Below are positions 14,401-57,380 of a stretch of DNA of 64,000 bases, one piece after another. Origin of the DNA: Mermis nigrescens (Eukaryota; Nematoda; Enoplea; Mermithida; Mermithidae). The notes under the pieces were generated by a model that saw only the letters and a list, made by a program, of their open reading frames with translations, had not been told where the DNA came from and ran no database searches. The first letter of the stretch is position 1, and the number at the start of each line of letters is the position of its first letter. The stretch lies in NCBI GenBank assembly GCA_036768485.1, contig JAVLUZ010000271.1:2648309-2712308 (forward strand), read 5' to 3'. The position numbers were made by a program, and so were the translations under genes.

Positions 14401-14629
14401 AAAATCGGTACGTAAGTAATGCATAATTCAGAGATTATACTTAAGTAAGTAATGCCTAATTTAGAGAAAATAATAATTCGTCAGATCAAAATAAAACACA
14501 TGATGTATTTTTGTGATCTTCTACACATCGATGTATTAAAAATACATACATACTTGTCTGTCCACCTGTTTTATGTGTAAATAAACGCTAGTCTTTTATA
14601 CATGTACATTACTTGTTATTGATGTTTAG

Positions 14630-15775
14630 GCCGCGCTGAATTCTGACAATTTTTGTAATGCAAAATTGCGTTTCAAAAAGGTGAAATCTCAAAATTTTCC
14701 AGCGCTTCGCGCCAAATAGATTTAATTTTATTACTTGTTATTGATGCTTAAGCCGCGTCAAATTTGGACAATTTTTTTGTAACGCAAAATTGCGTTTCAC
14801 AGAGGTTAAATTTCAAAATTTTCTGCGCTTCGCGCCGAATTCGGATAATTTTTGTGATGCAAAATTGCGTTTCAAAAAGGTGAAATCTTAAAATTTTCCG
14901 GCGCTTCGCGCCGAATTGATTTAATTTTATTACTTGTTATTGATGCTTAAGCCGCGCCAAATTTGGACAATTTTTGTAATGCAAAATTGCGTTTCAAAAA
15001 AGGTGGAATCTCAAAATTTTCCGGCGCTTCGCGCCGAATGATTTAATTTTATTACTTGTTATTGATGCTTAAGCCGCGCCAAATTTGGACAATTTTTGTA
15101 ATGCAAAATTGCGTTTCAAAAAGGTGGAATCTCAAAATTTTTCCGGCGCTTCGCGCCGAATTGATTTAATTTTATTACTTGTTATTGATGCTTAAGCCGC
15201 GCCAAATTTGGACAATTTTTGTAATGCAAAATTGCGTTTCAAAAAGGTGGAATCTCAAAATTTTCCGGCGCTTCGCGCCGAATTGATTTAATTTTATTAC
15301 TTGTTATTGATGCTTAAGCCGCGCCAAATTTGGACAATTTTTGTAATGCAAAATTGCGTTTCACAAAAAGTGGTTCAAAATTTTCCGCGCTTCGCGCCGA
15401 ATTGATTTAATTCCTATTACTTGTTATTGATGCTTAAGCCGCGCCAAATTTGGATAATTTTTGTGATGCAAAATTGCGTTTCAAAAAGGTGAAATCTCAA
15501 AATTTTCCGGCGCTTCGCGCCGAATTGATTTAATTTTATTACTTGTTATTGATGCTTAAGCCGCGCCAAATTTGGACAATTTTTGTAATGCAAAATTGCG
15601 TTTCAAAAAGGTCTAAATCTTCAAAAATTTTTCTGGCGCTTCGCGCCGAATTCGGACAATTTTTGTGATGCAAAATTGTGTTTCAAAAAGGTTAAATCTC
15701 AAAATTTTCCGGCGCTTCGCGCCGAATTGATTTAATTTTATTATTCGTTATTGATGTTTAGAGGTTGCGCTGAAT
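14630..15775 (+). repeat. 121-bp satellite array, about nine copies
   Basis: Units of about 121 bases containing 'ttattgatgcttaagccgcg', 'ttgtaatgcaaaattgcg' and the hairpin CGGCGCTTCGCGCCG. The start phrase recurs at about 14737, 14936, 15058, 15181, 15302, 15423 and 15544, with shortened units at the two ends. Middle copies are nearly identical and edge copies are diverged, as expected for an array kept alike by unequal exchange. No coding potential. Confidence 0.9.
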
Positions 15776-17205
15776 TATGACAATTTTCGTGCATTTCAAG
15801 CAGGATTTATATTTGAAATGAAAACGTATATACTCTTTGACGACATGAAAATGAGGAACTCTGTAGAAGTTTTATTTTTACACAATGAATTGCATAAAAA
15901 ATAAGCATATTAAAGGCGGTGAATGTCTCTTCAAGATTAAAGGTCAATTGTTACTAAAGTAATGAGTTTTTAAACATAATTGCTATGCAAATTATCGATT
16001 GCACTATTTTTTTACACCATACTAATTTTGACACACCATTTTTAATTAAAAAATTATGTCGCGAGAAATAGTGCGACTTCGCGTGAAATTATGAATGGAC
16101 TTTGCGTGGAAGCAAGACTAACATGTTAAAAATTCAACCACTTTTCTGACTTAGGCAACCAACCAAAAAATTGGGCTCCGGTACCAGCCGAGACTTTAAG
16201 GCTTGCCCAGCTAGTGGTTGCCATGGCAACGAGAGTACTTTTCATCAAGTTGCACAATTTTGCACTGATTTCTTGCAGAGGATGTAGAAGACTCTTACCT
16301 ATAGTCGTTTTTATCACTTGAAGACTTTATTTGTGTATAGAACTTTTAATAAAATTCAGAAAAAATTATTGATTTTTATATAAATGTCATAAATGAACGG
16401 AAATATCCTAAAAGATAGAATTTTTTCAAAAAATGTGATCATTTAAGGTCAACTAACTGTTTTACGCTGCAAACCATGCACTTCGCATAACATTTTGGGG
16501 GTGGTTTTTTTATTTCCCATAGTTTTTTTACATCCCAAATGGAATTTGCTGGTTTTTTTCTAGTTTTGACTTTGATCGATTTTTCTCTTCAAGACTAAAG
16601 GGATCTATGAAATCAACTAAGTGGTGAAAGATGGAGCATCGATTGGTAGGAGAGAGCACAAAATTTAGTCTTTTTCAGACTGCTGCGAAATCCATCATCA
16701 GCAAATCAAATTGTTTGCTGCCAAGCAATCTAGCAACACAGGAAAAAATACCTATAAAAGGGAGATGCAAGGCTCTCGCGCGCATTTTTAGATTTAATTC
16801 AATGCATGTGCTAAAGGATGAATATTCAAAAAATTTCTATATGCCGAGCACATGTATCAAGGAGGAAGCAAAAGGCACGTGTCGGTCGGGTTTGAGCGTG
16901 CTTTACCAGCACGCGTTCTTTTACAATTTGATATACCCATACAGAAAGTCCCTGGATTCGTCAATTTCAGCTTATACCTACCACTAATTCTGCTGCCCCT
17001 TTTCTATATCAAATTTCAAGAGATTAGCAGCTAGAACGTACCATTTTTTTCTGCACCTTGATATCTGTTCTACTACTGATTTTCCCTCATCTCAATGCTT
17101 AAATCGTGCTTTGCTAGTCGACAACAGTGACAAAGCCCTGCCAAACTGGAGGATTAAAACAGTGAGTGGTGTAAAAAACATGTTTGCTGATCATTTGATT
17201 GTGCT
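15776..17205. other. Non-coding stretch, nothing firmly recognised
   Basis: AT-rich sequence. The frame at 16631-16987 (118 codons) lacks any recognisable motif, has no splice or poly(A) context and reads as a chance frame. No tandem structure or terminal repeats seen. Confidence 0.35.
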
Positions 17206-21599: not shown

Positions 21600-22490
21600 T
21601 GTGGGTGGTCCGATAAAAATATGTGCTATCAAAAATTTTTGATTTTTTTTAACATAATTATGTGTGTAATTTTCACCACGTTGTTTCATACGGCAATGAT
21701 GAGCAATAAGCTGGCGATATCTAATTTGAACCTTGCAATATTGTTTTCACTCCATGCGAAATATTTCTCAGTAATTCACGAGAAAACACAAAAACTATGA
21801 AGTTTTGGCTGAAAAGGTACGCAATGTGTAAATAACTAGTTTATTTCGAAAATCTCTGCAATCTAATTGTGACTATTCTACTGAACTCGCATTTGCTTAT
21901 GTTCGCTAATAACTGAACGGATTCCAAATAATTTTTACCATACGAAAATCAGATTTTTCGATGAAAATGCAACAAGTATTAAGTGTGCTAACTTACACTA
22001 AAGTCTATATCTGGTTGTGAGGCTGGTTACTCGATTTTGTTGCTGTGTATGCTGGTATTCTTTGCTGTCACTAATTTCCGAACCCCTTTAAATTGTTTTT
22101 GCGAACTCAATGTAAATATCTGTAATAATTTTAAAAATCGAATGCTACTTACTTTATTGTGCATGCTAATTGCATTAACTGAGCTAGAACAAATAATTTG
22201 AATAATTTTACCTAATACGAAAATTAATACTTTTGCAAAATCTATTGCAAACATGTTAATTGTATTAGCTCGATTCCAATTCCCCACTTTACCCCAGTCA
22301 TAAGCTGCTCATTTGACTTCGTACATATATGCTTGCTGTGTTTTACGCTGTACCGATGGTCTAAGCACTTTTGGGGTAGTTTTCGTGAATTCATTGCAAA
22401 TATTCAAAATAACCTTGAAAAGTAAATATGCAAAGTTTCTCGTGTTACTCTAAACATTATGCAAATTTTGAAATCCTCGGATATTTGACC
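21600..22490. other. Non-coding stretch upstream of the LINE fragment
   Basis: Short weak frames only. No repeat boundaries seen. Confidence 0.3.
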
Positions 22491-22499
22491 GCTCGTGCC

Positions 22500-22811
22500 C
22501 TATCAGGCCGTTCACTCCATCACGCATGCAAAATTATTTGTTTATACCTATCTCCGCCACCTTCTCCGAACCAGGCGTCTGCAAGGCCGACCCCTGATTT
22601 TGACCTAGCTTATGCTGAAATTTTATGTAGATGTATTGAATGGGCTTGTTCTGTTCCTTTTCCCTTTGTAATCTTAGAAGATTTTAATTTGCCAAAAATT
22701 AATTGGCGAATAAATTCGCTTCCTAGTGATGATCTTAATACCCTATTTTTCGACACACTTTCGGGCACTGGTTTACATCGGTTAATAACAGAAAATACTC
22801 ATGATAACAAT
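22500..22811 (+). pseudogene. LINE endonuclease, 5' part, interrupted by the LTR element
   Basis: The frame reads the apurinic-type endonuclease of a non-LTR retrotransposon: 'ICLYLSPPPSPN', then 'FPFVILEDFNLPKINW' (the conserved G/E-D-F-N block), then 'GLHRLITENTHD'. The frame stops being LINE at 22811, where the LTR begins, and resumes in the same frame at 37751. The upstream start of the LINE is not defined; this is a 5'-truncated or decayed copy of a CR1/Jockey-like element. Whether it is the same family as the RT copy at 45.2-47.3 kb cannot be tested because the regions do not overlap. Confidence 0.75.
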
Positions 22812-23877
22812 TGTAACTGCGAGAGTTACACGGTAGGCGAACCTGCCTTAGCAGTTCGCGATAGCCATTACATAGCCAATACTAGTAGCTGTCTATGACG
22901 GTGCACTGTGGGCTATGCCTTCGGTCTTCCCATTATTTCCCCAAATTTTCAACAATAAAAAACAATTAGATACTTGTCCGGTATCGTAGAGTTAAGTGTA
23001 TGATAATAGTAATTGTTTCATGCATACCGCTTGTGTAATCGAGAACATTCGATCTGAGATAAAAGTCATTTCAGTATTACGTTAAATTGATCGTTGTTTT
23101 ATTTTACTGTAATGGCCCTTGAGGCCAGTGTACTTAACGTTGTAGAGTAGTCTGGCGTTTTTGCTTTTCGTTAGCCAGTCGTACGTCGACATATTCCGTA
23201 CGTTTTCGTTTTTCTTTTGCTTTTGTCCGGCTATAGGCCGTGATTTCTTCGTCGAATAAATACATAGAAAAAACCTACCCAGTGGTTTCTGGCTATACCG
23301 AGGGTAAGGTCGGCTACATCCCTTCGTCGAGGACTTCCACCCGTTTTAGTGGACTGATAGGTAAATTCCGTATGATAGCTTATTTTATTCGAAAATCATA
23401 TTTTATTTCTCAAGCCAAAAAATCGATCAAAAATATTATTTAATCTTTAGGGATGATTGATCAGCATAGAGCTCGTTGTTGTTGTTTTCATTGTTCAGCG
23501 TGCTACACAAATTAGGAACCAAAAACATTTCGTTCAAGGCACTGATTGAAAATAAGTTAAATAACAACTTGAGCTTGAGATAGGTCAACTGACCTCCGCG
23601 GCAAATTCCGAGACTAGGTAGGTAGCCTTAGGTCTTAGGGCGTAGCTGCTGAGATCACCCGACGAGAAGCAGCCAGCAATATTAGGGCTGAGGGGATCGA
23701 AGCCGTAAGGTCTGTAAGGGTCCAAAGATCGAAAGCCATCCAGTGCCGCGCGATCGGGGCCAGCACTAAGCGCAGACTTAAGTACCTACGTACCTAGGTA
23801 AATCTCGCAGGTGAATGTTAGTACGGTTCGTATCTGTGATGATTCTTTAGACCCAGATCGAACCGGCTACATTTACA
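22812..23877 (+). repeat. 5' LTR
   Basis: Starts TGTAACTGCGAGAGTTACAC and ends CCGGCTACATTTACA, with TGTAA/TTACA inverted tips. It carries AATAAA near 22954. The first 20 bases contain a short inverted repeat (TGTAACT...AGTTACA). It should hold the promoter and poly(A) site, but I cannot place the TATA box or cap site with confidence. Confidence 0.95.
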
Positions 23878-24460
23878 TTGGACGTTCCCTCCTTTAGGCT
23901 GCTAGCTACAGCCGAGCTGATCAATCATCGTAAAATTATTTTTCGATCCAAAAATCATCATTTTGGCCATCTAAGAATGTGTAACGTTTCGTTCACCTTT
24001 GTTGTTGTATCGACCGCGATCGTGGCAGTGCGCAATTTAAGTAAGCGTCCGTGGTAAAGATTTTGTGTATCGTGGTAAAGCCATCGTTATTTTTCTATTT
24101 CCGTCGAACCTTTATCGACGAAAGGCAGCTCTCACGCTCGCATTTTTCTATAAACGTCGGCCCTCAGGCGACGATTCATCATTTTCTCTTCTGACGACGA
24201 AATTCCGTCATTCAAGTTTTTACTATACCTGTTGTTCTAACCACGTACACGTTCTTGCGCATTAGGCTTAGTCCTATCTGTTTTCGATCATTTCACGTCT
24301 GGTATATCTTACTTCACGTAAGGAAGTACTATTTACGTGGAAAAACCTGTTTTTCGGATCGACAAAGGCCAAATTCGGAACATTTGTTTTGGGAAAAATT
24401 TCGACGTATTGAAATTCATTTTACCCAAGGTCAGATTTTTGGACATTCTTTATTCCTAAA
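23878..24460 (+). other. Leader between 5' LTR and gag, with primer-binding site
   Basis: Begins TTGGACGTTCCCTCC directly after the LTR, the expected position of the primer-binding site. I cannot assign the tRNA. No ORF. Possible splice donors such as TTCACGTAAGG (about 24313) could serve the acceptor before ORF3, but this is a guess. Confidence 0.6.
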
Positions 24461-26690
24461 ATGGCAGGAAAAAAGGTTTTGTGGACACCGCCCGCTAAAT
24501 TGAAAAAACCTTCTACGCCACCTACTTCAACTCGCCAATTACCTACCGCGCCTGTTGACTCTAATAGCGCGAGTAATTCTGCGAGTAATGACACAATTAC
24601 GAAAGACGTAACTACTACGGCGAATAATGATAAATTACCCGCGTCACTAAATGCCGCGAGTAATACACAGTCCGATGATGAATTGTTATTGACAACTGTG
24701 CGATCGCGCATTAATCAAACTTCGATAACTAGATCGGACCCTAACATTGATAATTCATCAAATCATACAATGATTGATAATACGACTACTCATAACACAG
24801 CGAATAATCCTGAAACCAGTTCGGAGCGCGAAAATCCCAATTCTGACGTCGAAAGTAATCATAGTCACAGCATAAATGCCGACCAAGAGCGTGCTAATGC
24901 TAATGCGACTAATGATCTTCTTTTGAAAGCTCTACAAGCTATTCATTTACAATTTTCGGATCTTTCTACGCGCTTTGAACAAGATAAAAAGGCAAATGCG
25001 GATGAAATGCGTAAACTGCGTCTGGAGCTAAGCACTATGCTTAAACCCCAACCAGTTCTGAATCGCATAGAGAGTAATCCATCTGAGCGCGTTAACCACT
25101 CAATCGATAGCGCAAATTTTTCTGAATTCAATGCACAAACTGCGAATCGTGCGCAAAGTACGCATCGTGCATCTTCACTGTTGTCTACTAGCAACAGAGC
25201 GTCAAATTCACGCTCACCTTCGGAAACCGTTCCTGAAAATATAACTCAAAGTTGTACAAATCGCGCGCCTGTGATGTCTAATTTGTCACAGAATCCTTTA
25301 AACACGGGTTTGCAACCAGTGCAAAACTCGGGTTTTTCGGAAAATATACCTACGATTTCGCAGCCGTCGGTATCAATTTCGCAGACGTCGCGATCTCGAC
25401 CTTCGCTGTCTTTAAATCGTAATGCGCCTTCTTTCGTACCTAGCTCTTCTACTACGAACTCGCAGCAGCAATTGAATCCTCCTCCGCTGCAATATTTTCC
25501 ACCTCAAGGCGAAAATTTACCTAATAGCTATGTACCTAATCCCATAAATGTGGAAATACCACTTAATAATAATATTTTGCATTCTTCCAATATCGAAATG
25601 CAACCTGTTGAGATAAATCTATCTGGCATTAACACCGAATCTGCACCTCCACCTGAATCATCTAGTAGGAGAAGACATGTAAAATTTTCTGACGAAAGCT
25701 CATCTAACAGCTATGATCGCCCGCGCAGCCGTCGCTCGCGTCGCAAAAGTCGATCGCGCAGACGACGTCATCGGCATAGTTCAGGTTCTTCATCTGAAAG
25801 CTCTCGTGGTGACTCGCGTCTCGCTGATTCCTTGAATCGCGGACCATTTTTGCAGCAAATGCAATTTGCAATTGCTAATAAAAAATTTTTTGATGGCGAT
25901 AAATCGGATATGAAAGCATATTTTGCAGAATTTGAATCGCTTGCCAATACCTATGATATTGACAAAGCTGATCGTTTAAAATTCGCTACTGGATTTCTTG
26001 ATCCTTATGTTTTGCGTTTATACCGTTCGTTACCTGCTGACATACAACAATCGTATTCAAAAACAAAACAAGCGCTAATAGCCGAATTTTGTCCAATGGA
26101 CACCGGTGCGCTCTTTAATCGTTTTTTGTCACACAAACAGCAGCCTAACAAATCGGTTAAAGCTTATTATCTCTCGCTTCGCGAAGAATTAATTAAGTCT
26201 GATCCTTACCTTGAAATTGATTCGCCACATTTCAATAATTTAATGCGACATCAGCTAAAAGAAGGTTTATTACCACACATTTCGAAAGAGGCATATCACA
26301 AAAAACCTAGGGCATCATTAGCTGAATTTTTGGATAATGCGCTAAGCGCTGAATTTGCTAACAAAGAATTTGAGGATAAAAAGGCAGTAACGCCTTATGT
26401 ATTGGTAACAGCTGCTCCCGTAGGCAGCGCAGTACCTAAAGATACCCCTCGCGCAATTAATCAAACTGATTCAAATCGCTCACGTTATAAAACGTTTCAT
26501 CGCTCATCGCGTGCTGAGAAACCAGAAAGTTCTTCTCGTAAATATTGCACCTTTTGCAAGCGCATAGGTCACATTTATGAGGAATGTTTCACGCGTCAAA
26601 GGCAAGAAGTAACTAATAATACTAATCAGAACAATCAAGCAGAGCGAAATAATAATTCTATGGCTCGCAATTGCAGCCAATCGCGTTCTT
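24461..26690 (+). CDS. gag: Retrotransposon Gag
   Basis: About 743 residues from ATG 24461. Residues 1-400 are a Ser/Thr/Asn-rich, probably disordered region. A strongly basic Arg/Ser tract follows (about 421-450, RSRRSRRKSRSRRRRHRH). Residues 460-640 match the retrotransposon Gag capsid-like fold ('FDGDKSDMKAYFAEFESLA', 'VKAYYLSLREELIKSDP'). A CCHC zinc knuckle (CTFCKRIGHIYEEC) lies near 26547-26588. The frame is open further to 27052, but homology passes to the -1 frame at a T5 run (26689-26693), where pol begins. That is the usual gag-pol geometry, but TTTTTGC is not a canonical slippery heptamer, so a single-base indel is equally possible. Gag packages the RNA and forms the particle. Confidence 0.9.
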
Positions 26691-29600
26691 TTTGCGTCGA
26701 AATCGTTCGCCATCGCGTTCGAATTCGCAAAATAGACATCGATCTCAATCACGATATCGTAACCCTAGTCAACATCGCTCATTTAACTATGCAAATAATG
26801 ATAATCGCTTTGAATCAAAGCAATCACGATCGAATTTTTGGCAAAATCGTAATGATTATTACCAAAATTCGTGTGCTAATTATCAAAATTCGCGTTACGA
26901 CAATCGCTATAATAATCAATCGCGCCAAAATACACCTTTTGTACAATTTCCAAATGAACAGCGTGGGACATACTATAACTCGAACTATCGCAACGACAAT
27001 AATTTTAATCGCCCTTATGTTACATATACCGCAGATAACCAGCCCACCATGAATGTGCCCCCACCGCAGCCAACCCTTACATCTCCTCATGATGTAAACA
27101 CGGTTACTGCGAAAGGGCCAGAATCTAGCGCGCGTCCCAATCTATTTGCGTCGCAAGAATTTCTCAAAGAGTACAAACGTTTACAACGTCGTCTAGCAAC
27201 TTATGAAAAAATTAATATACCTTCTTCGAAGACGTTAGATCCTAATATTCCTATTGTAAGCCACGCTGGAACTAATTTACCCACTATTCTCGTCAAAGTT
27301 CATGGCGTTGATGTACCTGCTCTCATAGATACAGGTTCACAGGTCATCATGATGACCACATCTGCATTCTTGCGTCTTGGTTTTAATTTACCACCTAAAC
27401 AAGTTTCGCAAGTTGTGCATGGTGTAGGCGAAATTACTGCAGTCGTTCGCTATAAAGTAAATATGACTCTAACCATCGCGGAACAATCTATTTCTACCTC
27501 AGTTGCTATAATTGATCATTTGCCGGAAGACATGCTTTTAGGATATGATTTTTGCGAATCCGCACTCATGTGGCTTAATCCTATTGAGCGTTGTGCTTTT
27601 ATAAACGGCATAAAGGTTAATTTACTCTCATCTCATGAAAAATTGCAATTTCGCACGAAACCCAACCCAACCACCTCTGGTGTTGTGTGTGTGCATGTTT
27701 TGTTGCCCGAGCCTGTTATAATACAACCTAGGCATGAATTAATTACACCTGGCTATATAAGTCATGGTTCTTGCAATTTTGATTTCGCACTATTCGAACC
27801 AAATCCTGATTTTATGGAAAAAACTTCACTTTTTGTTGCTCCATCTATAGTCGATGCTACGCAACCCTTAATACCTATTCGCGTCTGTAACATCTCTAAA
27901 GCGCCAATTCGCATTGACTCTGGTGACATAATAGGTTCCTTAACCTCTGATGCAGAAGTAGTGTCACATGTCTCATCTGTTGATGACAGAACACCAGAAC
28001 TTTTTGCATCAATAAATAAAGCTATAAACGGCTCCGCCATTGATTCTAGACAACAGCAACAAATCTGTGAATTATGTCTAAAATACGACTCAATTTTTGC
28101 ACTAAAAAACGAACCTCTCGGTCGTACCCCCTTGATGAAACATCATATCGATACAGGGGATAATCCACCCGTTGTGGGAAAAACTTATCGTGTCAAACAT
28201 TCTAGAAGGGAATCTATGCAGAAAATTATAAATGAAATGCTTGCGGATAAAATTATTCGACCTACAACTAGCCCATGGGCAAGTCCATTATTTCTCATTG
28301 GAAAAAGGACGGCTCCCTAAGGCCAGTCGTCGATTATCGACGGTTAAATGACGTTACTAAAACACAAGTTTATCCTCTTCCGCAACTAGACGATTATTTT
28401 GATACTGTAGGCAGTGCTGCATATTTTAGCACACTAGATTTGAAATCTGGATACTGGCAAATCCCACTCGATAATAAATCTCGCGAAAAAACAGCATTTA
28501 TATGTCCTGTTGGTCATTATGAATTTGAAGTTTTACCTTTTGGGTTAAAGAATGCGCCCGCAGATTTTCAAAGACTAATGGAGCTCGGGCTCACAGGTCT
28601 AAATTGGAAATCTTGTCTCGTTTTCATCGATGACATAATTATCTTTTCACGCACTTTCAAAGAACATTTAAAAGATCTCGAAAATGTCTTTATTGCTCTT
28701 AAAAAGGCAAACTTACGTGTAAAGCCTGATAAGTGCCATCTTGCGCATGCAGAGGTAAAATTTCTTGGCCATAGCATAAGTGCAATGGGCATCGCTCCTG
28801 ACATGTCCAAAGTCAGCGGATTTAATCTCGTTTCCCGTACCAAAAACCGTAAAATCCTTGCAGAAATTCCTTGGTTTAGTCCAATGGTTTAAGAAATTCG
28901 TTAAAGATCCTGCTAAAATTGCTAAACCGCTATTCCATCTTCTGCGTAAAGATGTCGAATTGTGCTTGAAGGCTGAACACCAAACCGCCTTTGAGCTTCT
29001 GAAGAAAGCATTTACGTCCCCACCTATTTTGCAATTACCAAAGTTTGACAATGAGCACCAATTTATTTTAACAACTGACGCAAGTAACTATGCGTTAGGT
29101 GCTATTTTGACACAAAAACACTTACCATCAAAAAATCGTTTTATTCTTAGCTACGCTAGTCGCGTACTAAATTCTGCCAAATGTAATTATGCTACTTCGG
29201 AAAAAGAAGCGTTAGCGGTAGTGTGGGCCATCAAGCATTATCGACATTATCTTTACGGTAAAAAATTCATTGTCGAAACTGATCATCAAGCGTTAACCTG
29301 GCTAGTAAACGTAAAAGACCCATCGAGTCGATTACGCCGTTGGGGTCTCAAATTACAGGAATACGAATATGATATCGTTTACGTTCCTGGTGCATATAAT
29401 TGCGCAGCTTATCTTCTCTCACGTTATCCCAAATATGATCATGCAGAACGAAAATATAAAGTCGAGCACAAAAATATCGTTAACATCACCAAATTTAGAA
29501 TCAGAAGATTCTGAGTCAGATGATGAATCAGTTCCACCTGACCAATCGCGCGATAACGCGCCTACTGCACCAATTAATCATCCAAATGCGCAAAATAATG

Positions 29601-29871
29601 TTCCTACTGCGCAAACCGATCCTACTAATTCTAAACCACCTACATTTTGCGAATGCTTGTTACTTACCGATGCCGAAAAAGCTGAAATGCTAAGACCTGC
29701 GCGTTTACTCGCTGAGCAACGTGCAGATGACGAATTGCATAAAATTCGCATCACATTGAACGACTTAACAACGAAAAAATATCGTGACGAATTTTTTCTC
29801 GTAAACGATGTACTTTTTCGTCGTTTCCAACCTAAGCGCTCACCAACTGTTGTTCATCAAATAGTCATACC

Positions 29872-30141
29872 CATACGTGGGCAGCAAGAAAATTCTGGGG
29901 GGGGGGTGCAAGATTTTTTTGAAAGGTCAAAAAATGGCCTTAAAAATGGTGGTAGGGTGATAAAAAGACCATTTTTTGACGTTTCTCATCAAGCACTATC
30001 CATTGGCATCAAAAAATTGCGAAAAAACTGAAAAAAATTTTTAAAAATTGATTTCTGGGGGGGGTATTTTTATTTCTGGGGGGGGGGGTATTTTGGTTTC
30101 TGGGGGGGGGGTGCATACCCCTACTCCCACGCCCAGGTGTG
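29872..30141 (+). mobile_element. CACGTGGGC-family hAT MITE inside pol
   Basis: Begins CATACGTGGGCAGCAAGAAA and ends CCACGCCCAGGTGTG; 270 bp. The target GTCATACC is duplicated at 29864-29871 and 30142-30149. MITE plus duplication is 278 bp, which accounts exactly for the change of reading frame across it. So the linker between RNase H and integrase was open before this insertion. Confidence 0.93.
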
Positions 30142-31438
30142 GTCATACCCAAATCTTTGCGTCGCTTCATATTAACGGAATTTCATGACTCTATTTTCGG
30201 AGCTCATTTTTCATCGCGCAAAATCTTGCCCGCCATTCAAATGCGTTATTGGTGGCCGCGCATGGAAAATGATGTGATCGCCTGGTGTCGGAATTGTGAT
30301 GTGTGCTTACAACGTAAGGTCGCATTAAATTCCGCATCCGTTCCGCTGCAACCAATCGAAGTATTCGCACCCTTTGAACTCATTGCGTGCGATTGTTTGC
30401 ATATGCCGCGATCCCCCTCCGGAAATGACCAAATTGTAGTTTTTGTGGATTATTTCACAAAATACGTGGAAACTTTTGCTGTTTCTGATATCAAAGCGAC
30501 AACTATCGCAAATTTATTATTACGAGAAATTATACCACGTTATGGAGTCCCCAAGAAATTTTTAACAGATCAGGGGTCAAATTTTACATCTACCCTTATT
30601 TCGGAAGTCTGTAAATTATTAAACGTTCAAAAAATATTTACAACCCCATATCACCCCCAGTGTGATGGGTTGGTGGAACGTTATAATCGAACTTTGATTG
30701 ATGGTTTGTCGAAGCTGAGTGCGCGTTCCCAGTATGATTGGGAGCAATTTTTACCTTTTGCATTATTTGCATACCGCGTGACTCCGCAATCATCGACTAA
30801 TATATCTCCTTTCGAAAGGCTTTATGGTCGCGAACCAGCATTTCCTCTTGACACTTTACTAATAAATGACTTTGTGATAAATCCGAATTTACCTTCCGTT
30901 GCGGAAAAATATGTCATTGATTTAAAGCTGACTTTACAAGACTTGCATGAAATCGCATCTCAAAATTTAACGCAAGCGCGAAAGCAGCAGAAATCACAAT
31001 ATGACAAGTCCGTAACGCAAACAAATTTTTCTCTTTCGGATATAGTCTATCTTAATAATACCTCAGTCATTCAACCTGAAATAGGTAAATTATCACCCAA
31101 GCGTGTGGGTCCATACTGAATTATTGACTTACCTATGCCTGAAACTGCGAAAATCGCATATGTCTATAACCCCCTTATTGTTCATCACGTTCATAGGAAT
31201 AGACTTCTGTCTGAGCCTAAACTACCTTATTCTGACTTAATTGTGGAAAAACACGCGTACGTCCCTGGCGATTTTGTGTTGGTTAAATTACCACATCGCC
31301 CTCTTGCCCCGGCAGTTGTCATAAGTTTTGAGGATTTACCGGGCAGGGAACAAAAAGCTAAGGACTGCGCGCCTATACGTTTATTAAATGGCTCTAAAAC
31401 AGCACATGCCGTACCATTATCAAATGTTTTTCCTTTTG

Positions 31439-31445
31439 CAGACCC
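31439..31445 (+). promoter_or_regulatory. Probable splice acceptor for an ORF3 subgenomic mRNA
   Basis: The pyrimidine-rich tract TTTTTCCTTTTGCAG ends at 31441 and the ORF3 ATG follows four bases later (31446). The position, overlapping the end of pol, is where gypsy-type elements place the acceptor that expresses their third ORF. Confidence 0.55.
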
Positions 31446-33491
31446 ATGGCTGCAGAAGGCACCCCAAGCAAAGAGGCATTGCTGGAGGCAGCTGGTCGCC
31501 GATGCAAATTCGAAGGGCGTGATCCCGCGTCCTTAGATGAGTTTCGTTCGGCGTTGACCAGTATGGCATTGGAGCGGGGTTTGGTTGTACCAGACCCGCT
31601 GCCACAAAACGACAATAGTCGTGTTAGCGGTTTACAAGCATTCACTGCTAGATGGGTTAAGCACAAAGTAGCACATAAAGTTAAAAATCATACCAAGCGT
31701 ATAAACGATCAACAGCTCTGGTGGGAGAATAGATTTTGTAGATTTCCTTTGGTAACCCCTCGCGTACCAAGGAACAGGCCTATGCCTACGGTCATAGTCT
31801 CCGACGACCAGAAGTCGTTTGCCGCCATATTGGCGTTAATTCAACCATCAAATTTGACTAATGGCACACTATTTTTAGGCTACGATTCCGAATTTGTTAA
31901 TGACAGGAAAGGCAGGCATTATAAGACCTGGGACTTGCGTTTTCAGCAATTATGTCCCACCTACCAGGACCTCCATGGCCCATTCGTACGCTACGTCCAA
32001 GTTGCGAGCGCGAACGGTCATGTGTTCTGCTGGGACCTGGCAAAGTTCCCGCAACCTCCGTTCGGGCTTCACCAGTTGCTCGAAACACGTTTGACAAACG
32101 TATAAATGGTTTGTTACGATCCTACGCAAAATCGACTTGCGTATTTTCACGTATACGGTCCAACTTTTGAGGAAATTTTGGCAATCCCAGATGCAGAAAT
32201 TCGCAATCAACTGCACTGGAAGGATCCTTCCATTGCTAATTTTATTGATATTCAGCCATTAGCGAGAGAATTTACTCGTCGTTTTTGCATCACAGCACGT
32301 TCACACACATTGAAGCGCTTGGCTGAGTTCCTATTTGACATGTATCTTGACCCGAACGCGCCTGATAACTTTGGACAGGCGTGGAGCTTACCTTTAACTC
32401 GGAACATGCAGCATTATTTAGTGATGGACGCCCTCATAACTGTCGATGTTTTTATATTGATAGAAGGGACATCGCAAAATAATCGCATTACTGACGATAG
32501 AAAGCCTATGTCAGTCTCGTTTGTAGGCAATGAATTGCACATTAAGGCCACTGGCCCGAAAGCCAGAGTGCGTATACCATTGTCGACTAGTAAACCACCG
32601 CAAGGACAGTTGACCAGCACAGCTGCTGAAGCTGAAGTCGAAGTTGACTCGAATGGCGAAGAATTAATTAGAGTTGAGGACTTCTATGGCCCGGCTCCGC
32701 AACTTCCAGCGGCCATAGCAGCAGCCACCACCGTTGCCTCAGTAACGGAAGCATTGGCTCACACTAATGTTTTCGACAATCCTGACCTACAAGTTCAGGG
32801 TTCGCAAGCCGTTGCCGACTCAGTTTCTGGCCCGGCTCATGCACCTGATACCGAACCAAAATCTAAACCAACCAGTTTGAGTACGCCAGCATCTGCGTTT
32901 TCTTCGCAAACGGACATTCCATATGATTCGCCTATGGTCGATGTAGAACCGATCTCCACTGAAGACAATGATTTATCTCCTAAGCGTTTAGTCATGGCGT
33001 TATCTGACACTGAGGCGGAAAGACAAGCTAATTTGTCGCCACCGCGCACTACACGCGCGGCATTGGCCAGAAAAGGGGCTGTTACCGTTTCGCAACCGAT
33101 TGTCTCGCAATCGCTTGCGGCGGGCCAACAAGCGCCCTTGGGCATCAGTTCACTCGCACCTTTACCGACTTCACAGCCGGGTTGGGTAGAGCGTGATTTT
33201 GAGCCCGATATAATCATGACAGAGATTATAGGTTTTCCGCCGGTACCGCAACAAACTTTACCCGCGCATGAAGTACCACAAGTAGCATTGTATACGCAAG
33301 TTGCGACTCATTCCGCGCCACAAGGCGTGTCGGCACCAGATGCTCGTTTTATGGCTCCTATGGCCATGACGGGTGTGTCGAGTACTGTGGCGACTATTCA
33401 CCCACAGGCAATTCAAAGTCAGTCGTCAAATAGGGAAGTCGCCATACCCCCAATGATGCAAGCTATTCGCGAACGTATGGCCCGCGAATGA
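31446..33491 (+). CDS. Retrotransposon ORF3: RNase D/WRN-like (DEDDy) 3'-5' exonuclease
   Basis: 681 residues with one in-frame TAA at 32103-32105. The N-terminal 115 residues are basic and unassigned. Then the exonuclease pattern follows in order: 'SFAAILALI' helix; exo I 'LFLGYDSEF' with D147 and E149 (31884, 31890); 'RYVQVASANGHVFCWDL', the usual strand pair with hydrophobic residues after exo I; 'LHQLLE'; the exo II region 'VCYDPTQNRLAYF' just after the stop, where the expected Asp aligns best with Asn (32130), with Asp 32118 as an alternative; 'FIDIQPLAREF'; and exo III 'PLTRNMQHYLVMDAL', giving Y-x3-D (32415, 32427), the DEDDy signature. The C-terminal half is Pro/Ser/Ala-rich and probably disordered. 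Family members trim RNA or DNA 3' ends using two metal ions. This copy may be inactive (stop, and Asn at exo II). Domain assignment is by eye, without a search. Confidence 0.7.
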
Positions 33492-35879
33492 AAGCGCGAG
33501 AGTGCAAAGCCACTCGCGCTTACGTTCAGCATTTTTTCACCATGATGGAAAATATGACGCAAGAACCTCCGTGCACTGTCGCACCAGTCGTATTGCATGA
33601 GTTACATGACTGTTTGGGTGAAGTTGAAGGAACGCGTCTATATGATCAGCTGGTTGAAGCTGCACAAGTGTACTTCGACCGAGTGTATGCAATCCATTTG
33701 CAGCACGCGACTTCAACTGATTCCCCGTCGCGTCCATTAGTGTGGCCCTTGACCGCACAGCCTTTGGCTGATGTGGATCGTCCACCCGCACCTCAATTTA
33801 TCAGCGAATTGAGTGTGTTTAACCGATTGTTTTATCCCAACCAATACTTCGTGCGCATACGCTTCTTTATTACAACGGGAATGATGTTGTACGAAGTGCC
33901 GTTAGATTATTTGGTGGTGCACCCGCACCTTGATGCACCGACTGAAGTGTCTGATGGTGTTGCACATCAGGTTCGCCCGGAGTTATATCCACACAGGATG
34001 TCTCCAGCGCCAGATCATATGGCACCCATCTTAATATCGGCACGCCAGATGGTCGATATTTTTGATACTTTCCGAGAATTTCAAGCATTATATGATTCGG
34101 AGTATCGACACATGACAATCTTTTCTTCCATAGACGTCATGCGCGCTACAGCGCTTTTAGAATTCCTGGACAGGAAGTTCCACTTCTTTGCGTACGCCTA
34201 CGGAAATCCCGGAATAGGCTGGCGCATGGTGGAGCAGTTACGTCGCATGTTGCGCGTAGCGTTCCTTGGTGAATCTTATACACCTTCGCCAAGTGAGGCT
34301 TTTCCGGAATTCTCGGATTTAACGGCACAAATCGAAAGTCAACAAGTTTTACACAACATGATTTGACAAATTTGGCTAGCAACCGATCCGCCGCTCGAAG
34401 TTCCGGCTCAATTCGATTGTTTTAGAGGTCAACAAAAATTGGTCTTTTTCCTAAAACATCGAATTCAAGGCGAATTAGAAAAAATTCGTAGACAAAGGCG
34501 ACAGGCATCCTCGCAGGACCCTAGCGGATCCGCAGCAAGCCTTGAATTGCCAGAAGTCGACCTTTCTTTGGAAGCACAAATTGAAATGCGTAGAACACGC
34601 ATGACGATCGAGAAACGCGATCGTGAGAATTTGGCTACGGAAATGCCACGGCGTGTGACGAAATTACGCGCCGCCGGTTCTCTTACTGAAGCTTCCGAGG
34701 TTTGTCGTATGCCAGAAGACGAACATAAGGCGAAATTGAATCGATTTTATGACACCAAGTCCAAACACGCTTTGCGTCGACTGAAAAATTTGGAAAAGCA
34801 ACGAGTCAGAAGACTCGTTCAAGCTGAAGTTGCAGCTAAATTAAAAGCGCGTTTAGGCCCAAAGGGATCGAGGCGGCAAGAACCGCAATCGTCCCGGCAA
34901 CGCTATGCTGAAACGCATCACCGTTCACAATCGCAAGCACAACAGCAAACGCAAGTAAAACCGCATATACCGTAATATACAAGACTGCAAACCCAACCGC
35001 GGCAACAACAGCATTTTACGGAATCGCGTGAGCGTTCCGAGGCATATTCACAGGCCGATGCTGGTCATCTGTCGCGCTCGTGACAGCAGCAGCCTTACAA
35101 ATATCGCCGCCAACCACAGTCGAACCGCGGAACTCATTGGGACCGGTCACAATCCCATCAACGGCAGCAATGGGATCATACGTGGGCAGCAAGAAAATTC
35201 CAGGGGGGGTGCAAGATTTTTTTGAAGGTCGAAAAAATGGCCTTAAAAATGGTGGTAGGGTGATAAAAACACCATTTTTTGACGTTTCTCATCAAGCACT
35301 ATCCATTGGCATCCAAAAATTGCGAAAAAACCGAAAAAAATTTTCAAAAATTGATTTCTGGGGGGGGGTATTTTGATTTCTGGGGGGGGTATTTTGGTTT
35401 CTGGGGGGGTTGCATACCCCCCAAACCCGCCCACGCCCAGGTGTGAATGGGATCAATCGTATCGCTCTCCGTTGGAACAAAGCCAACCAGCCACCGGGGG
35501 TTATCAGCCACAACCTCGACCGGGTCCACTTTTGCCGAAACCGTGGCCTGTTACTCAACAACAACAGCGTCCACGCGAACCTTCACGTGAACAATCGTAT
35601 GGCTTCACGCCGGAGCAATTATTTACTCCGGTGCAATCTATACCGCATTGTTACGCGGACGACTACGAGGACGACGATGACTTTGAGGACGATGATCGAC
35701 CAGTCGACCCACATCGACGCCTACGCCAACACATGTATGGGCGTAGGCAATCACCATACCAATATCGTGAGCGTTCGAATACGCGTCGCGAACTGGAATC
35801 GGATCAGGAATATTTCCAACGTCAACGACGTCGTGGAAAACCGTATGGCTCGAAGGCCAATTATCAGGATCGTTATTAA
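33488..35879 (+). CDS. Retrotransposon ORF4, unrecognised protein (about 704 codons, interrupted)
   Basis: ATG at 33488 overlaps the ORF3 stop as ATGA (33488-33491). The frame continues through three stops (34364-34366, 34973-34975, 35081-35083) and, past the MITE at 35177-35445, to TAA at 35877-35879. MITE plus target duplication is 277 bp, exactly explaining the frame change. The first 290 residues look folded (long mixed helical/strand stretches, for example 'FNRLFYPNQYFVRIRFF' and 'EFLDRKFHFFAYAYG'). Next is a charged, probably coiled segment (EIRRQRR, 'RRLKNLEKQRVRRLVQAEV'), then a Gln/Arg/Pro-rich tail with an acidic patch (DDYEDDDDFEDDD). No signal peptide, membrane segment or known domain is seen. 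The basic and Gln-rich tail suggests nucleic-acid binding; that is inference. Confidence 0.6.
35177..35445 (+). mobile_element. CACGTGGGC-family hAT MITE inside ORF4
   Basis: Begins CATACGTGGGCAGCAAGAAA and ends CCACGCCCAGGTGTG, 269 bp, flanked by AATGGGAT (35169-35176 and 35446-35453). Very similar to the copies at 11266 and 29872, which suggests recent activity of the family. Confidence 0.93.
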
Positions 35880-36679
<800 letters not shown>

Positions 36680-37746
36680 TGTAACTGCGAGAGTTACACG
36701 GTAGGCGAACCTGCCTTAGCAGTTCGCGATAGCCATTACATAGCCAATACTAGTAGCTGTCTATGACGGTGCACTGTGGGCTATGCCTTCGGTCTTCCCA
36801 TTATTTCCCCAAATTTTCAACAATAAAAAACAATTAGATACTTGTCCGGTATCGTAGAGTTAAGTGTATGATAATAGTAATTGTTTCATGCATACCGCTT
36901 GTGTAATCGAGAACATTCGATCTGAGATAAAAGTCATTTCAGTATTACGTTAAATTGATCGTTGTTTTATTTTACTGTAATGGCCCTTGAGGCCAGTGTA
37001 CTTAACGTTGTAGAGTAGTCTGGCGTTTTTGCTTTTCGTTAGCCAGTCGTACGTCGACATATTCCGTACGTTTTCGTTTTTCTTTTGCTTTTGTCCGGCT
37101 ATAGGCCGTGATTTCTTCGTCGAATAAATACATAGAAAAAACCTACCCAGTGGTTTCTGGCTATACCGAGGGTAAGGTCGGCTACATCCCTTCGTCGAGG
37201 ACTTCCACCCGTTTTAGTGGACTGATAGGTAAATTCCGTATGATAGCTTATTTTATTCGAAAATCATATTTTATTTCTCAAGCCAAAAAAATCGATCAAA
37301 AATATTATTTAATCTTTAGGGATGATTGATCAGCATAGAGCTCGTTGTTGTTGTTTTCATTGTTCAGCGTGCTACACAAATTAGGAACCAAAAACATTTC
37401 GTTCAAGGCACTGATTGAAAATAAGTTAAATAACAACTTGAGCTTGAGATAGGTCAACTGACCTCCGCGGCAAATTCCGAGACTAGGTAGGTAGCCTTAG
37501 GTCTTAGGGCGTAGCTGCTGAGATCACCCGACGAGAAGCAGCCAGCAATATTAGGGCTGAGGGGATCGAAGCCGTAAGGTCTGTAAGGGTCCAAAGATCG
37601 AAAGCCATCCAGTGCCGCGCGATCGGGGCCAGCACTAAGCGCAGACTTAAGTACCTACGTACCTAGGTAAATCTCGCAGGTGAATGTTAGTACGGTTCGT
37701 ATCTGTGATGATTCTTTAGACCCAGATCGAACCGGCTACATTTACA
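36680..37746 (+). repeat. 3' LTR
   Basis: 1067 bp, matching the 5' LTR base for base as far as I compared, except for one extra A in a run near 37286-37292. Followed by the target copy CAAT (37747-37750). Confidence 0.95.
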
Positions 37747-37750
37747 CAAT

Positions 37751-38109: not shown

Positions 38110-40535
38110 CTTAGTGCCCCCAGTTTTTTTTCTTGTTTACACTCAATACCGAGCGCGTCGTGAGTGTGTAAAGTTTACACCAAAAATTCAAATAATTTGC
38201 TGAGGGCCAATTTTTTTCAAAATGTTTTCCTAATTAGTAGGTTACGAATCTGGTCTTAAAATTTCTTTACACTCATTGGTTGTTGCACAGGAGTGTAAAC
38301 TAGACGAGTTTTTTACAGTTTTCGTGTGCAAGAGCATATCTAACTCAGTTTTACATTCTATGCAGTCTGATTGGTTTCAAAAGGTAGACGGTTAAAAAAT
38401 CTGAGGGGGACTTTTTTAATTTTTCTTAAAAAGTAATATTTTTGAATTTAGAGGCGGTTTATTGTGAAGAGGCTGAGACAAAAAATATTTTTCCCTGCCA
38501 TATCCTCCACTCAGTAGACAGAACGTGGTAACTACCTTTAAAATGTGCCTCGTCTTAAGCGCTACACGTCAAAATTTATTTTGTTTCTTTACAATCAATA
38601 TTGCGTTATTAGTGCGAGTGTAAAACTTTACACTGAAAAAAATTTTTCCGCCCATAGCGTCGTGGATGATGAATTTTTAAAAAATGTTTTCCCTAATTAG
38701 TAGGTTACGAATCTGGTCTTAAAATTTCTCTACACTCATTGGTTGTTGCACTGGAGTGTAAACTAGACGGTTTTTTACAGTTTTCGTGTGCAAGAGCATA
38801 TCTAACTAAGTTTTACATTCTATGCAGTCTGATTGGTTTCAAAAGGTAGACGGTTAAAAAATCTAGGGGGACTTTTTTAATTTTTCTTAAAAAAGTAATA
38901 TTTTTGAATTTAGAGGCGGTTTATTGTAAAGAGGCTGAGACAAAAAAATATTTTTTCCCAGCCATATTCTCCACTCAGTAGACAGAACGTGGTAACTACC
39001 TTTAAAATGTGCCTCGTCTTAAGCGCTACACGTCAAAATTTATTTTGTTTCTTTACAATCAATATTGCGTTATTAGTGCGAGTGTAAACTTTACACTAAA
39101 AAATTTTTCCGCCCATAGCGTCGTGGATGATGAATTTTTAAAAAAATGTTTTCCATAATTAGTAGGTTACGAATCTGGTCTTAAAATTTCTCTACACTCA
39201 TTGGTTGTTGCACAGGAGTGTAAACTAGACGGTTTTTTACAGTTTTCGTGTGCAAGAGCATATCTAACTAAGTTTTACATTCTATGCAGTCTGATTGGTT
39301 TCAAAAGGTAGACGGTTAAAAAATCTAGGGGGACTTTTTTAATTTTTCTTAAAAAGTAATATTTCTGAATTTAGAGGCGGTTTATTGTGAAGAGGCTGAG
39401 ACAAAAAATATTTTTTCCCTGCCATATCCTCCACTCAGTAGACAGAACGTGGTAACTACCTTTAAAATGTGCCTCGTCTTAAGCGCTACACGTCAAAATT
39501 TATTTTGTTTCTTTACAATCAATTTTGCGTTATTAGTACGAGTGTAAACTTTACACTGAAAAAAATTTTTCCGCTCATAGCGTCGTGGATGATGAATTTA
39601 AAAAAATGTTTTCCCTAATTAGTAGGTTACGAATCTGGTCTTAAAATTTCTTTACACTCATTGGTTGCTGCACAGGAGTGTAAACTAGACGGTTTTTCAC
39701 AGTTTTTGTGTGCAAGAGCATATCTAACTAAGTTTTACATTCTATGCAGTCTGATTGGTTTCAAAAGGTAGACGGTTAAAAAATCTAGGGGGACTTTTTT
39801 AATTTTTCTTAAAAAGTAATATTTTTGAATTTAGAGGCGGTTTATTGTGAAGAGGCTGAGACAAAAAATATTTTTTCCCTGCCATATCCTCCACTCAGTA
39901 GGCAGAACGTGGTAACTACCTTTAAAATGTGCCTCGTCTTAAGCGCTACACGTCAAAATTTATTTTGTTTCTTTACAATCAATATTGCGTCATTAGTGCG
40001 AGTGTAAACTTTACACTGAAAAAAATTTTTCCGCCCATAGCGTCGTGGATGATGAATTTTTAAAAAATGTTTTCCCTAATTAGTAGGTTACGAATCTGGT
40101 CTTAAAATTTCTCTACACTCATTAGTTGTTGCACAGGAGTGTAAACTAGACGGTTTTTTACAGTTTTCGTGTGCAAGAGCATATCTAACTAAGTTTTACA
40201 TTCTATGCAGTCTGATTGGTTTCAAAAGGTAGACGGTTAAAAAATCTAGGGAGACTTTTTTAATTTTTCTTAAAAAGTAATATTTTTGAATTTAGAGGCG
40301 GTTTTATTGTAAAAGAGGCTGAGACAAAAAAAACATTTTTCCCTGCCATATTCTCCACTCAGTAGACAGAACGTGGTAACTACCTTTAAAATGTGCCTCG
40401 TCTTAAGCGCTACACGTCAAAATTTATTTTATTTCTTTACAATCAATATTGCGTTATTAGTGCGAGTGTAAACTTTACACTGAAAAAAATTTTTCCGCCC
40501 ATTGCGTCGTGGATGATGAATTTTTAAAAAAATGT
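38110..40535 (+). repeat. 462-bp tandem array, about five copies
   Basis: The phrase GAGTGTAAACTAGACG recurs at 38291, 38754, 39216, 39676 and 40137, giving periods of 463, 462, 460 and 461. Units are about 95-98% alike by eye. The array starts and ends with diverged partial units. Short frames inside repeat with the unit and are not genes. Confidence 0.93.
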
Positions 40536-40872
40536 TCTCTGTGAGGTCAGAATAATGAATCTGACCTTCAAACTTTTCTACAATCAATACACAGTACCAG
40601 GGGTTTAAACTTTACACTCTATTTGATGAGTAAAAAAACAGATTCTGTCAAAGATTTCTAAGCCAACTTTTTCGGTTAAGAGTTAAGATAATTTAAATAA
40701 GTAAAAATAAAGCAACTTTTAAGGGCTACACGTCAAAGCAAACCGCGTTCAAAAAAACGTAATATTGAGTTGTTTATGGGGGTGTAAAGTTCGAAATCTG
40801 AGGTGTAAAATGGGCGAAAAAAAACAGGTTTTTTCGTAATTAATTGGTAAATCATATCAAATATTTTGCGGA

Positions 40873-52921: not shown

Positions 52922-53173
52922 CATACGTGGGCAGCGCCGAAATTCTGGCGGATGGGGGGTGGGGGTTGCAGGATTTTTCAAAGGTCAAAAAATATTTTAA
53001 AAATGGTGGTACGGCGAAAAAATATCATTTTTCAACGTTTTTCATCGAACACTATTCATTGGCATCAAAAAATTGCGAAAAAAACAAAAAAAAATTCAAA
53101 AATTGAATTCTAGGGGTGGGGTATTCGGCCTGCTGGGGGTGCATACCCCCTGAACCTTCCACGCCCAGGTTTG
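52922..53173 (+). mobile_element. CACGTGGGC-family hAT MITE
   Basis: Begins CATACGTGGGCAGCGCCGAA and ends CCACGCCCAGGTTTG, 252 bp, flanked by perfect CTCACATG (52914-52921 and 53174-53181). Confidence 0.88.
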
Positions 53174-56876: not shown

Positions 56877-57380
56877 TTAAAGTCTTTACAAGTGGGAAAA
56901 GGTGATTGTGGTTTTACTTTGAGAAATAAATTAGACAATAGTTTATTCTTTAACAAAGAACAGATCAATCTGAATTAAAGAAAACGACAAATAATTTAGT
57001 TTACTAACTCAAGTGAATGCAAGTCCGAATGATCACTGTTGCAATGCTATACCAGTAACGTATGTAGCTGGAATTCTGAATCTGGGGAGACCAAAATTTT
57101 GAAGCAAATATTCTAACAAATACTTGTAGACAGATAGAAATAATAGTATATTTGAGCGTTTCTCAACGAGCTCTAATTATTGGTGAAAAATAATTGGAAA
57201 AAAACAAAAAATTTTTCTTGAAAGCGCCCGAAAATTCTTGGCCTATCATCTCAATAGAATACTAAAATGTATTCTGACGGTCTTTCTATGAAGTGTCTAG
57301 AATTTCCATTTTTTTCCGTTGGGCACGTTTACAAAAAATACTCGTGGGACTAGTCCCCCATGTCCCCCCACAGCTACGTG

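What the first reader, a model, noticed from the sequence alone, without database searches (positions are those of the whole stretch)
31446..33491. A Ty3/gypsy retrotransposon that carries a DEDDy 3'-5' exonuclease as a third ORF
Seen: downstream of integrase the frame shows D-x-E (GYDSEF), the strand-pair after exo I, an exo II-like block and Y-x3-D (HYLVMDA) in the right order and at plausible spacing for RNase D/WRN/EXD2-type exonucleases. Known: Ty3/gypsy elements normally end at integrase or add a chromodomain or envelope; I do not know a described family with an RNase D-like ORF. Inference: the enzyme could trim cDNA or RNA 3' ends during reverse transcription, or interfere with host small-RNA silencing, where 3'-end trimming matters.
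Basis: partly seen in the sequence, partly recalled or inferred. Interest (0 to 1): 0.85.

Follow-up and report, generated by a model that had tools for sequence, protein, structure and literature searches.

The report
Worm retrotransposon with exonuclease and PWWP-integrase
A virus-like jumping gene, probably of a worm, carries an extra nucleic-acid-trimming enzyme that selection has kept, and its DNA-inserting enzyme ends in a chromatin-binding type of domain like that of LEDGF, the host protein that lentiviruses use; jumping genes with such an extra exonuclease were known from rotifers, the pairing with a PWWP-tailed integrase did not show up in the papers searched.

Summary
Window 22812-37746 is a 14,935-bp Ty3/gypsy element; behind integrase lies ORF3 with a divergent DEDDy 3'-5' exonuclease domain. 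This copy is broken: in-frame TAA at 32103-32105, exo II Asp missing. In the host genome (524 Mb, probably the nematode Mermis nigrescens) 92 copies of the ORF3 part were scored; 89 lack internal stops, and intact ORF3s run about 1,385 aa. The DEDDy residues are invariant in 13 of 13 aligned copies; median dN/dS of the exonuclease is 0.08. Related ORFs pass PF01612's cut-off, and a profile of ten of them scores this family 64.4-68.5 bits, 1,000 shuffles at most 5.2. So neither chance nor one-off capture. Unexpected: integrase here ends in a PWWP domain (28 of 28 loci, 27 places). In a sister family it keeps its motif, matches LEDGF/PSIP1 (E 3.3e-10) and has the exonuclease next door. My paper searches listed nothing like it. 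Function is unproven.

The parts
22812..23877 (+). 5' LTR (1066 bp, TGT...ACA)
   Evidence: 0 mismatches and one 1-bp gap against the 3' LTR
36680..37746 (+). 3' LTR (1067 bp)
22808..22811 (.). target-site duplication CAAT (second copy 37747-37750); the element interrupts a LINE endonuclease-like frame
   Evidence: The flanks put together with one CAAT give an uninterrupted frame
24461..27052 (+). gag-type ORF1 with one CCHC knuckle (knuckle seen by eye)
   Evidence: Retrotrans_gag E=0.0015, under its cut-off
26656..28320 (+). protease and start of RT
   Evidence: Asp_protease_2 E=1.1e-11
28272..28892 (+). reverse transcriptase (piece in another frame)
   Evidence: RVT_1 E=4.2e-35
28780..29514 (+). 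RNase H (piece in another frame)
   Evidence: RT_RNaseH E=3.5e-36
30142..31119 (+). integrase (H2C2, rve, start of GPY module); TGA at 31117-31119 in this copy
   Evidence: Integrase_H2C2 E=7e-20, rve E=3.7e-12
31120..31536 (+). rest of GPY module and C-terminal PWWP domain (PF00855 at about 31267-31458)
   Evidence: PF00855 E=0.0035, under its cut-off; AF2 model whose 50 listed PDB matches are 47 PWWP entries and 3 DNMT3 complexes; PWWP-profile hits in 28 of 28 loci of the family
31420..31441 (+). probable 3' splice site (T-rich tract + CAG) 4 nt before the ORF3 ATG
   Evidence: one of five that tie for best of 707 AG sites by a simple score; near-identical in 22 of 22 loci with contiguous ORF3a/b
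31446..32105 (+). ORF3, first part: N-terminal region and exo I (D-x-E in YDSEF, 31881-31895); TAA at 32103-32105 in this copy
32106..33491 (+). ORF3, second part: exo II block (catalytic Asp absent in this copy), exo III Y-x3-D, then Pro/Ser/Gln-rich stretch
   Evidence: PF01612 E=0.11; 89 of 92 genome copies without internal stop
33488..34975 (+). Middle and basic parts of the same protein in intact copies (two frames in this copy)
   Evidence: In frame with the exonuclease in intact copies
35355..35879 (+). Arg/Gln-rich C-terminal end of ORF3 in intact copies; in this copy a MITE (35178-35445) reaches into this frame

Best explanation
Shown: this is one broken member of a multi-copy Ty3/gypsy family in which ORF3, behind a PWWP-tailed integrase, encodes a protein of about 1,385 aa that begins with a DEDDy 3'-5' exonuclease domain, nearest among solved structures to WRN, EXD2, Egalitarian and mut-7, and ends in basic, Arg/Gln-rich regions. 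The exonuclease domain is under strong purifying selection with all catalytic positions kept in intact copies, so it is very probably a working part of the element's life cycle. Inferred: ORF3 is made from a spliced subgenomic RNA (acceptor ending at 31441), is brought to the element's RNA or cDNA by its basic C-terminus, and removes 3' ends, most likely non-templated or mispaired cDNA ends and RNA ends, so that strand transfer and integration can proceed (about 0.45 for this role). Integrase is then held on chromatin by its own PWWP domain, which keeps its motif in sister families and looks degenerate in this one.
For: Element anatomy, LTRs, TSD, empty site. Pfam domains: 5, 50. Copies: (92 scored of 2,299 first-look candidates, the window and its twin among them; 89 of 92 without internal stop; 34 of 92 in an open frame of at least 1,290 aa, one of these listed with a TAG inside the match); intact layout: 98. 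Catalytic positions: 13 of 13 copies chosen from the 28 loci fetched; 4 of 4 of this family. Profile of ten related DEDDy ORFs: 64.4-68.5 bits for 5 of 5 copies tested, best of 1,000 shuffles 5.2. PF01612 over cut-off in 7 of 7 related ORFs scanned (28.3-40.4 bits; chosen because they had matched PF01612). tblastn from the window's first ORF3 half to two of these loci, E 4.9e-9 and 7.1e-10. Profile of 12 ORFs (3 of this family, 9 others) against the PDB: 16 matches at E up to 1, namely WRN (best 3.5e-12), EXD2, NrnC, Egalitarian, mut-7 homologue, DNA polymerase I, diDNase, a putative exonuclease and BAD_0989. dN/dS of the exonuclease region: median 0.08, range 0.02-0.10, 75 pairs with dS over 0.02 among 13 distinct intact copies. 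Acceptor in 22 of 22 loci. No strong transmembrane segment: best 19-residue mean 1.65.
Against: PF01612 stays under its cut-off for this family (12.7-13.3 bits against 23.6; 3 of 5 intact ORF3s match at E 0.074-0.11, 2 of 5 not). A profile of bacterial RNase D/NrnC does not separate the window piece from shuffles (1.6 bits, at least 10 of 500 shuffles reach it), and hhalign gave under 1% probability. The single-sequence model failed (pLDDT 38). Of six group-one rows three lack a catalytic residue (L120 and L124 in exo I, L150 the exo III Tyr). No donor motif GTRAGT in 23878-24700. Activity, splicing and role are not tested; the 2017 rotifer paper says that catalytic activity is yet to be shown and finds no unambiguous link of ORF3s with copy number (PMC5408684).
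Confidence: 0.85

Rival explanations
1. The exonuclease counters host small-RNA silencing by trimming 3' ends of siRNAs or their precursors.
For: Solved relatives include a mut-7 homologue and Egalitarian, which act in RNA pathways (recalled; mut-7 silencing is named in PMC5408684); ORF3 is a separate, probably spliced product, which suits an accessory factor.
Against: Best match is WRN, which acts on DNA (recalled; named as such in PMC5408684). No small-RNA data here. At least 92 copies fit either role.
Confidence: 0.25
2. The domain is a nucleic-acid-binding pseudo-exonuclease, as Maelstrom and EXD1 are said to be (PMC5408684).
For: Weak similarity to PF01612; three of six group-one rows and the window copy lack a catalytic residue.
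Against: All five DEDDy positions invariant in 13 of 13 copies of this family, and the lowest median dN/dS of the ORF lies there.
Confidence: 0.15
3. A one-off host gene capture or chance motif without function.
For: The window copy is broken, and its PF01612 match alone is weak (E=0.11).
Against: 92 scored copies, purifying selection, related DEDDy ORFs in other families of the same genome.
Confidence: 0.01
4. ORF3 serves as an envelope-like protein.
For: Position behind pol and a probable splice site are those of env genes.
Against: No strong transmembrane segment in any part; DEDDy domain near the N-terminus.
Confidence: 0.03

Closest known systems
Bdelloid rotifer Vesta and Juno LTR retrotransposons with DEDDy ORF3 (Rodriguez et al. 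2017, PMC5408684)
   Same: Gag-pol element with a separate DEDDy exonuclease ORF3 behind integrase; the paper says ORF3s are expressed from spliced messages; DEDDy ORFs in more than one lineage of one genome
   Different: Host probably a nematode (inference); no dUTPase match between PR and RT in this copy; PWWP at the integrase end; ORF3 about 1,385 aa with long extra regions; conserved positions fit DEDD, where the paper writes that the motif is changed to DEED
Athena PLEs / Terminons (PMC6431247 passages, PMC5408684)
   Same: Retroelements with DEDDy and coiled-coil accessory ORFs
   Different: Penelope-type RT, no LTR or integrase
Dada DNA transposons with an in-protein DEDDy exonuclease (PMC3706591 passages)
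   Same: DEDDy exonuclease in a mobile element
   Different: DNA transposon; the exonuclease is inside the transposase
Chromoviruses (Ty3/gypsy with integrase C-terminal chromodomain)
   Same: Integrase ends in a chromatin-reader type of domain
   Different: PWWP (PF00855), no chromodomain match at E up to 1
Lentiviral integrase with host LEDGF/p75 (PSIP1) PWWP tether
   Same: PWWP of the HDGF/LEDGF kind: a sister-family domain matches PSIP1 at E 3.3e-10
   Different: Here the domain is part of pol, not of a host cofactor; tethering not tested

Membership tests
Ty3/gypsy LTR retrotransposon | LTR pair, TSD, PR-RT-RH-IN order | tested here: met
   profile A1 (integrase of P0001 with the window's tail): best solved match Ty3 Gag-Pol 3.1e-19
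DEDDy 3'-5' exonuclease (PF01612 kind) | D-x-E, exo II Asp, Tyr-x3-Asp | tested here: met
   13 of 13 aligned copies, aligned with RNase D and NrnC; the window copy itself lacks the exo II Asp
DEDDy 3'-5' exonuclease (PF01612 kind) | PF01612 over curated cut-off | tested here: not met
   This family 12.7-13.3 bits against 23.6; related ORFs 28.3-40.4 bits, met
DEDDy 3'-5' exonuclease (PF01612 kind) | Exonuclease activity | not testable with these tools
   needs enzyme assay
Bdelloid Vesta/Juno lineage | DEDDy ORF3 behind integrase | tested here: met
Bdelloid Vesta/Juno lineage | dUTPase domain between PR and RT | tested here: not met
   no dUTPase match in window:26671-28317 at E up to 1; one copy, broken pol
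Bdelloid Vesta/Juno lineage | Common descent of pol and of DEDDy ORF | not tested
Chromovirus | Chromodomain at integrase C-terminus | tested here: not met
   PWWP instead
PWWP domain (PF00855) | Profile over cut-off | tested here: inconclusive
   Window piece under it (18.2 against 25.6 bits); over it: P0001 40.6, sister integrases L120 52.2 and L126 45.1
PWWP domain (PF00855) | P-W-W-P type motif with cage aromatics (cage positions recalled) | tested here: not met
   Window family reads RPLAP; L120, L126, L134, L151 read GYPFWP or GYPYWP
Env-bearing errantivirus-like element | Transmembrane fusion protein as ORF3 | tested here: not met
   hydropathy scan only

The most novel reading that the evidence does not exclude
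Probability: 0.5. Interest if true: 0.8.

Novelty: new variant of a known kind. Interest (0 to 1): 0.62.

Why it matters
It suggests that DEDDy ORF3s are not a rotifer oddity: they occur, conserved under selection and in at least two groups of elements, in what is probably a nematode, so they may do something general for LTR retrotransposons. The PWWP-tailed integrase would be a natural, single-chain version of the integrase-LEDGF arrangement of lentiviruses, and makes the question how PWWP readers steer integration testable by comparing insertion sites of families with an intact and a decayed cage.

Tried and rejected
Protein database of 5.8 billion: ORF3b whole and its residues 1-135 found nothing; integrase found 197, of which 120 were listed, one of them (P0001) with PF00855. 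Viral contigs: six scans; five without a relative, one with a single 17-residue match that I take for chance. PHROGs and NCBIfam: only weak matches to unrelated families, E 0.12 to 0.5. Bacterial DEDDy profile: not significant (61-63). AF2 of the exo piece alone: unusable. Rfam at gathering scores and tRNA scan of the window: empty. Rejected: env; one-off capture. Origin of the DEDDy ORF from the host is open: a host-like piece (L115) scores 37.1 bits against the profile of the element ORFs, and no eukaryotic cellular DEDDy is in the tree.

Full report
What is in the window. An LTR pair at 22812-23877 and 36680-37746 (no mismatch, one 1-bp gap) bounds a 14,935-bp element. It is flanked by CAAT on both sides and interrupts a LINE endonuclease-like frame, which reads through when the flanks are put together with one CAAT (LINE by eye, no Pfam match). 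[quoted passage not shown]

State of this copy. Pol is in several frames; there is a TGA at 31117-31119 in integrase, a TAA at 32103-32105 in ORF3 and a TGA at 34364-34366. Two copies of one MITE sit in it, each with its own 9-bp duplication. LTRs this similar beside so many lesions suggest that lesions are partly older than the insertion, or partly assembly error; the probable source assembly is nanopore-based (PMC10989877, abstract and passages). A second copy, identical over the 4,383 bases compared, lies 178 kb away, but 200 and 300 bases of its flanks are identical too, so it is a duplicated stretch, not a second insertion.

Is the motif real? Within the window alone the case is suggestive: PF01612 is the only Pfam family to match the 132-aa downstream piece at E up to 10 (E=0.11, residues 49-116 on profile 99-165 of 173), nine shuffles match nothing, and the exo III pattern turns up in 1 of 200,000 shuffles (a looser form, met by 13 of 13 known sequences of which nine are close kin, in 122). 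Against: a bacterial RNase D/NrnC profile cannot tell the piece from shuffles (1.6 bits, shuffles up to 3.9), the upstream piece alone matches no Pfam family, and a single-sequence fold was unusable.

The genome decides. The window lies in a 523,963,438-base assembly of 860 contigs. Of 92 copies of the downstream ORF3 part that were scored (2,299 first-look candidates; the window and its twin are among the 92), each covers at least residues 1-458 of 461, 89 have no stop inside, and 34 lie in an open frame of at least 1,290 aa (one of those has a TAG listed). I worked with 28 loci, which are 27 places: L085 and L091 are the same, and L084 is the window. Where complete, ORF3 is a single protein of 1,366-1,390 aa that takes in the window's ORF3 halves and the frames down to about 35879. 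In 13 exonuclease regions chosen from these loci D-x-E, the exo II Asp and Y-x3-D are invariant. In 13 distinct intact copies (another choice: at least 1,283 aa from the same ATG; the other 15 of 28 loci were dropped as broken, cut short or duplicate) median dN/dS is 0.08 for the exonuclease region (0.02-0.10), 0.13 for the N-terminus, 0.22 for the Pro-rich part, 0.12 for each of the two later parts (pairs are not independent).

Family identity. A PF01612 search of the genome gave 22 matches, all over the cut-off. By the loci I sort them into 3 host-like pieces (L111, L115, L127), 6 with a PWWP-tailed integrase upstream (L119, L120, L123, L124, L126, L128), and 13 others, of which 5 show integrase in the locus (L113, L114, L121, L122, L130; the flanks are at most 1.5 kb) and none a PWWP. 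Seven of seven ORFs of these kinds scanned have PF01612 at 28.3-40.4 bits. A profile of ten of them, without the window family, scores the window family 64.4-68.5 bits (5 of 5 copies tested), 1,000 shuffles at most 5.2; in the profile of the PWWP-linked group alone (36.4-42.1 bits) the exo II Asp is aligned. tblastn links the window's first ORF3 half directly to L119 and L123 (E 4.9e-9, 7.1e-10). A profile of 12 ORFs hits 16 PDB sequences at E up to 1, best WRN 3.5e-12, then EXD2, NrnC, Egalitarian, mut-7 homologue, DNA polymerase I and kin. The tree parts the element ORFs from four bacterial sequences, with the order among the three element groups unresolved. Catalytic residues are complete in 5 of 5 group-two rows and 3 of 6 group-one rows.

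The integrase tail. Behind the GPY module pol goes on into a PWWP domain: E=0.0035 here, 3.7e-10 in the closest database protein P0001, and PWWP-profile hits in 28 of 28 loci of this family and in the 6 group-one loci (the profile was built from P0001, L120 and L126). The two-sequence AF2 model (pLDDT about 75 over residues 51-130; below 50 for 1-45) finds 47 PWWP entries and 3 DNMT3 complexes among 50 listed PDB matches, best E 5.9e-4, with modest TM-scores. The window piece alone finds nothing by sequence in the PDB; P0001's domain finds HRP-2 and PSIP1 (2.6e-5, 1.5e-4). A PF00855 search listed 101 matches in the genome, all over the cut-off (150 of 460 candidates scored); in the 20 best loci, 20 of 20 have integrase before and a DEDDy ORF after the PWWP. 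These 20 are not independent: five printed PWWP sequences are near-identical, and L151 is the same element as L124. The PWWP of L134 matches PSIP1 (LEDGF) at 3.3e-10 and keeps GYPFWP; the window family reads RPLAP, so its cage is probably lost.

Expression. A T-rich CAG acceptor ends 4 nt before the ORF3 ATG; it is one of five that tie for best of 707 AG sites and is near-identical in 22 of 22 loci with contiguous ORF3. No donor motif GTRAGT was found in 23878-24700. Splicing is inference.

Prior art. PMC5408684 (abstract and parts 1-3 of 5 of its text) already reports DEDDy ORF3s in Vesta and Juno of bdelloid rotifers and in Athena PLEs; PMC5718144 and PMC6431247 (passages) repeat it; PMC3706591 (passages) has DEDDy in Dada transposons. 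For PWWP in a Ty3/gypsy integrase, three searches (1 paper; 20 of 174 listed; 3 papers) listed nothing that describes it by title or abstract start. Of these I opened two: PMC11054761 (passages), a history of integration meetings that names PWWP once, for LEDGF, and PMC2706977 (abstract and outline), on LEDGF with other tethers. The M. nigrescens paper has no hit for exonuclease, PWWP or gypsy in its main text. That the host is M. nigrescens rests on assembly size and scaffold number (524,220,005 bases, 867 scaffolds) and is inference.

Noticed in passing
window 31120-31536; L083-L110, L119-L126, L133-L152: PWWP domain at the C-terminus of Ty3/gypsy integrase, LEDGF/HDGF-type with its motif kept in sister families, degenerate in the window family.
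   Followed up: yes
L113, L116, L121, L125, L131 (G000): A second set of DEDDy ORFs (about 430-550 aa) without a PWWP nearby, some with integrase upstream: DEDDy ORFs in at least two element groups of one genome.
   Followed up: partly
window 29873-30141, 35178-35445, also about 11266-11535, 52955-53125, 57379-57629: A short non-autonomous repeat (about 265 bp); the two copies inside the element have 9-bp target duplications.
   Followed up: partly
window 22419-22811 and 37751 onward: LINE endonuclease-like frame that the element interrupts.
   Followed up: yes
G000 C190:2493469-2508403: Duplicate of the window's element, identical in the stretches compared, with identical 200- and 300-base flanks, 178 kb away: segmental or assembly duplication.
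   Followed up: partly
window 8814-10960: Broken hAT transposase (Dimer_Tnp_hAT E=2.3e-6 in 10445-10957).
   Followed up: no
window 38212-40536 and 14608-15787: Tandem arrays with units of about 464 and about 122 bp (self-comparison).
   Followed up: no
window 32001-36000: The ORF3 region is 48-49% G+C against 39-42% in gag-pol, which could mean a different origin.
   Followed up: no
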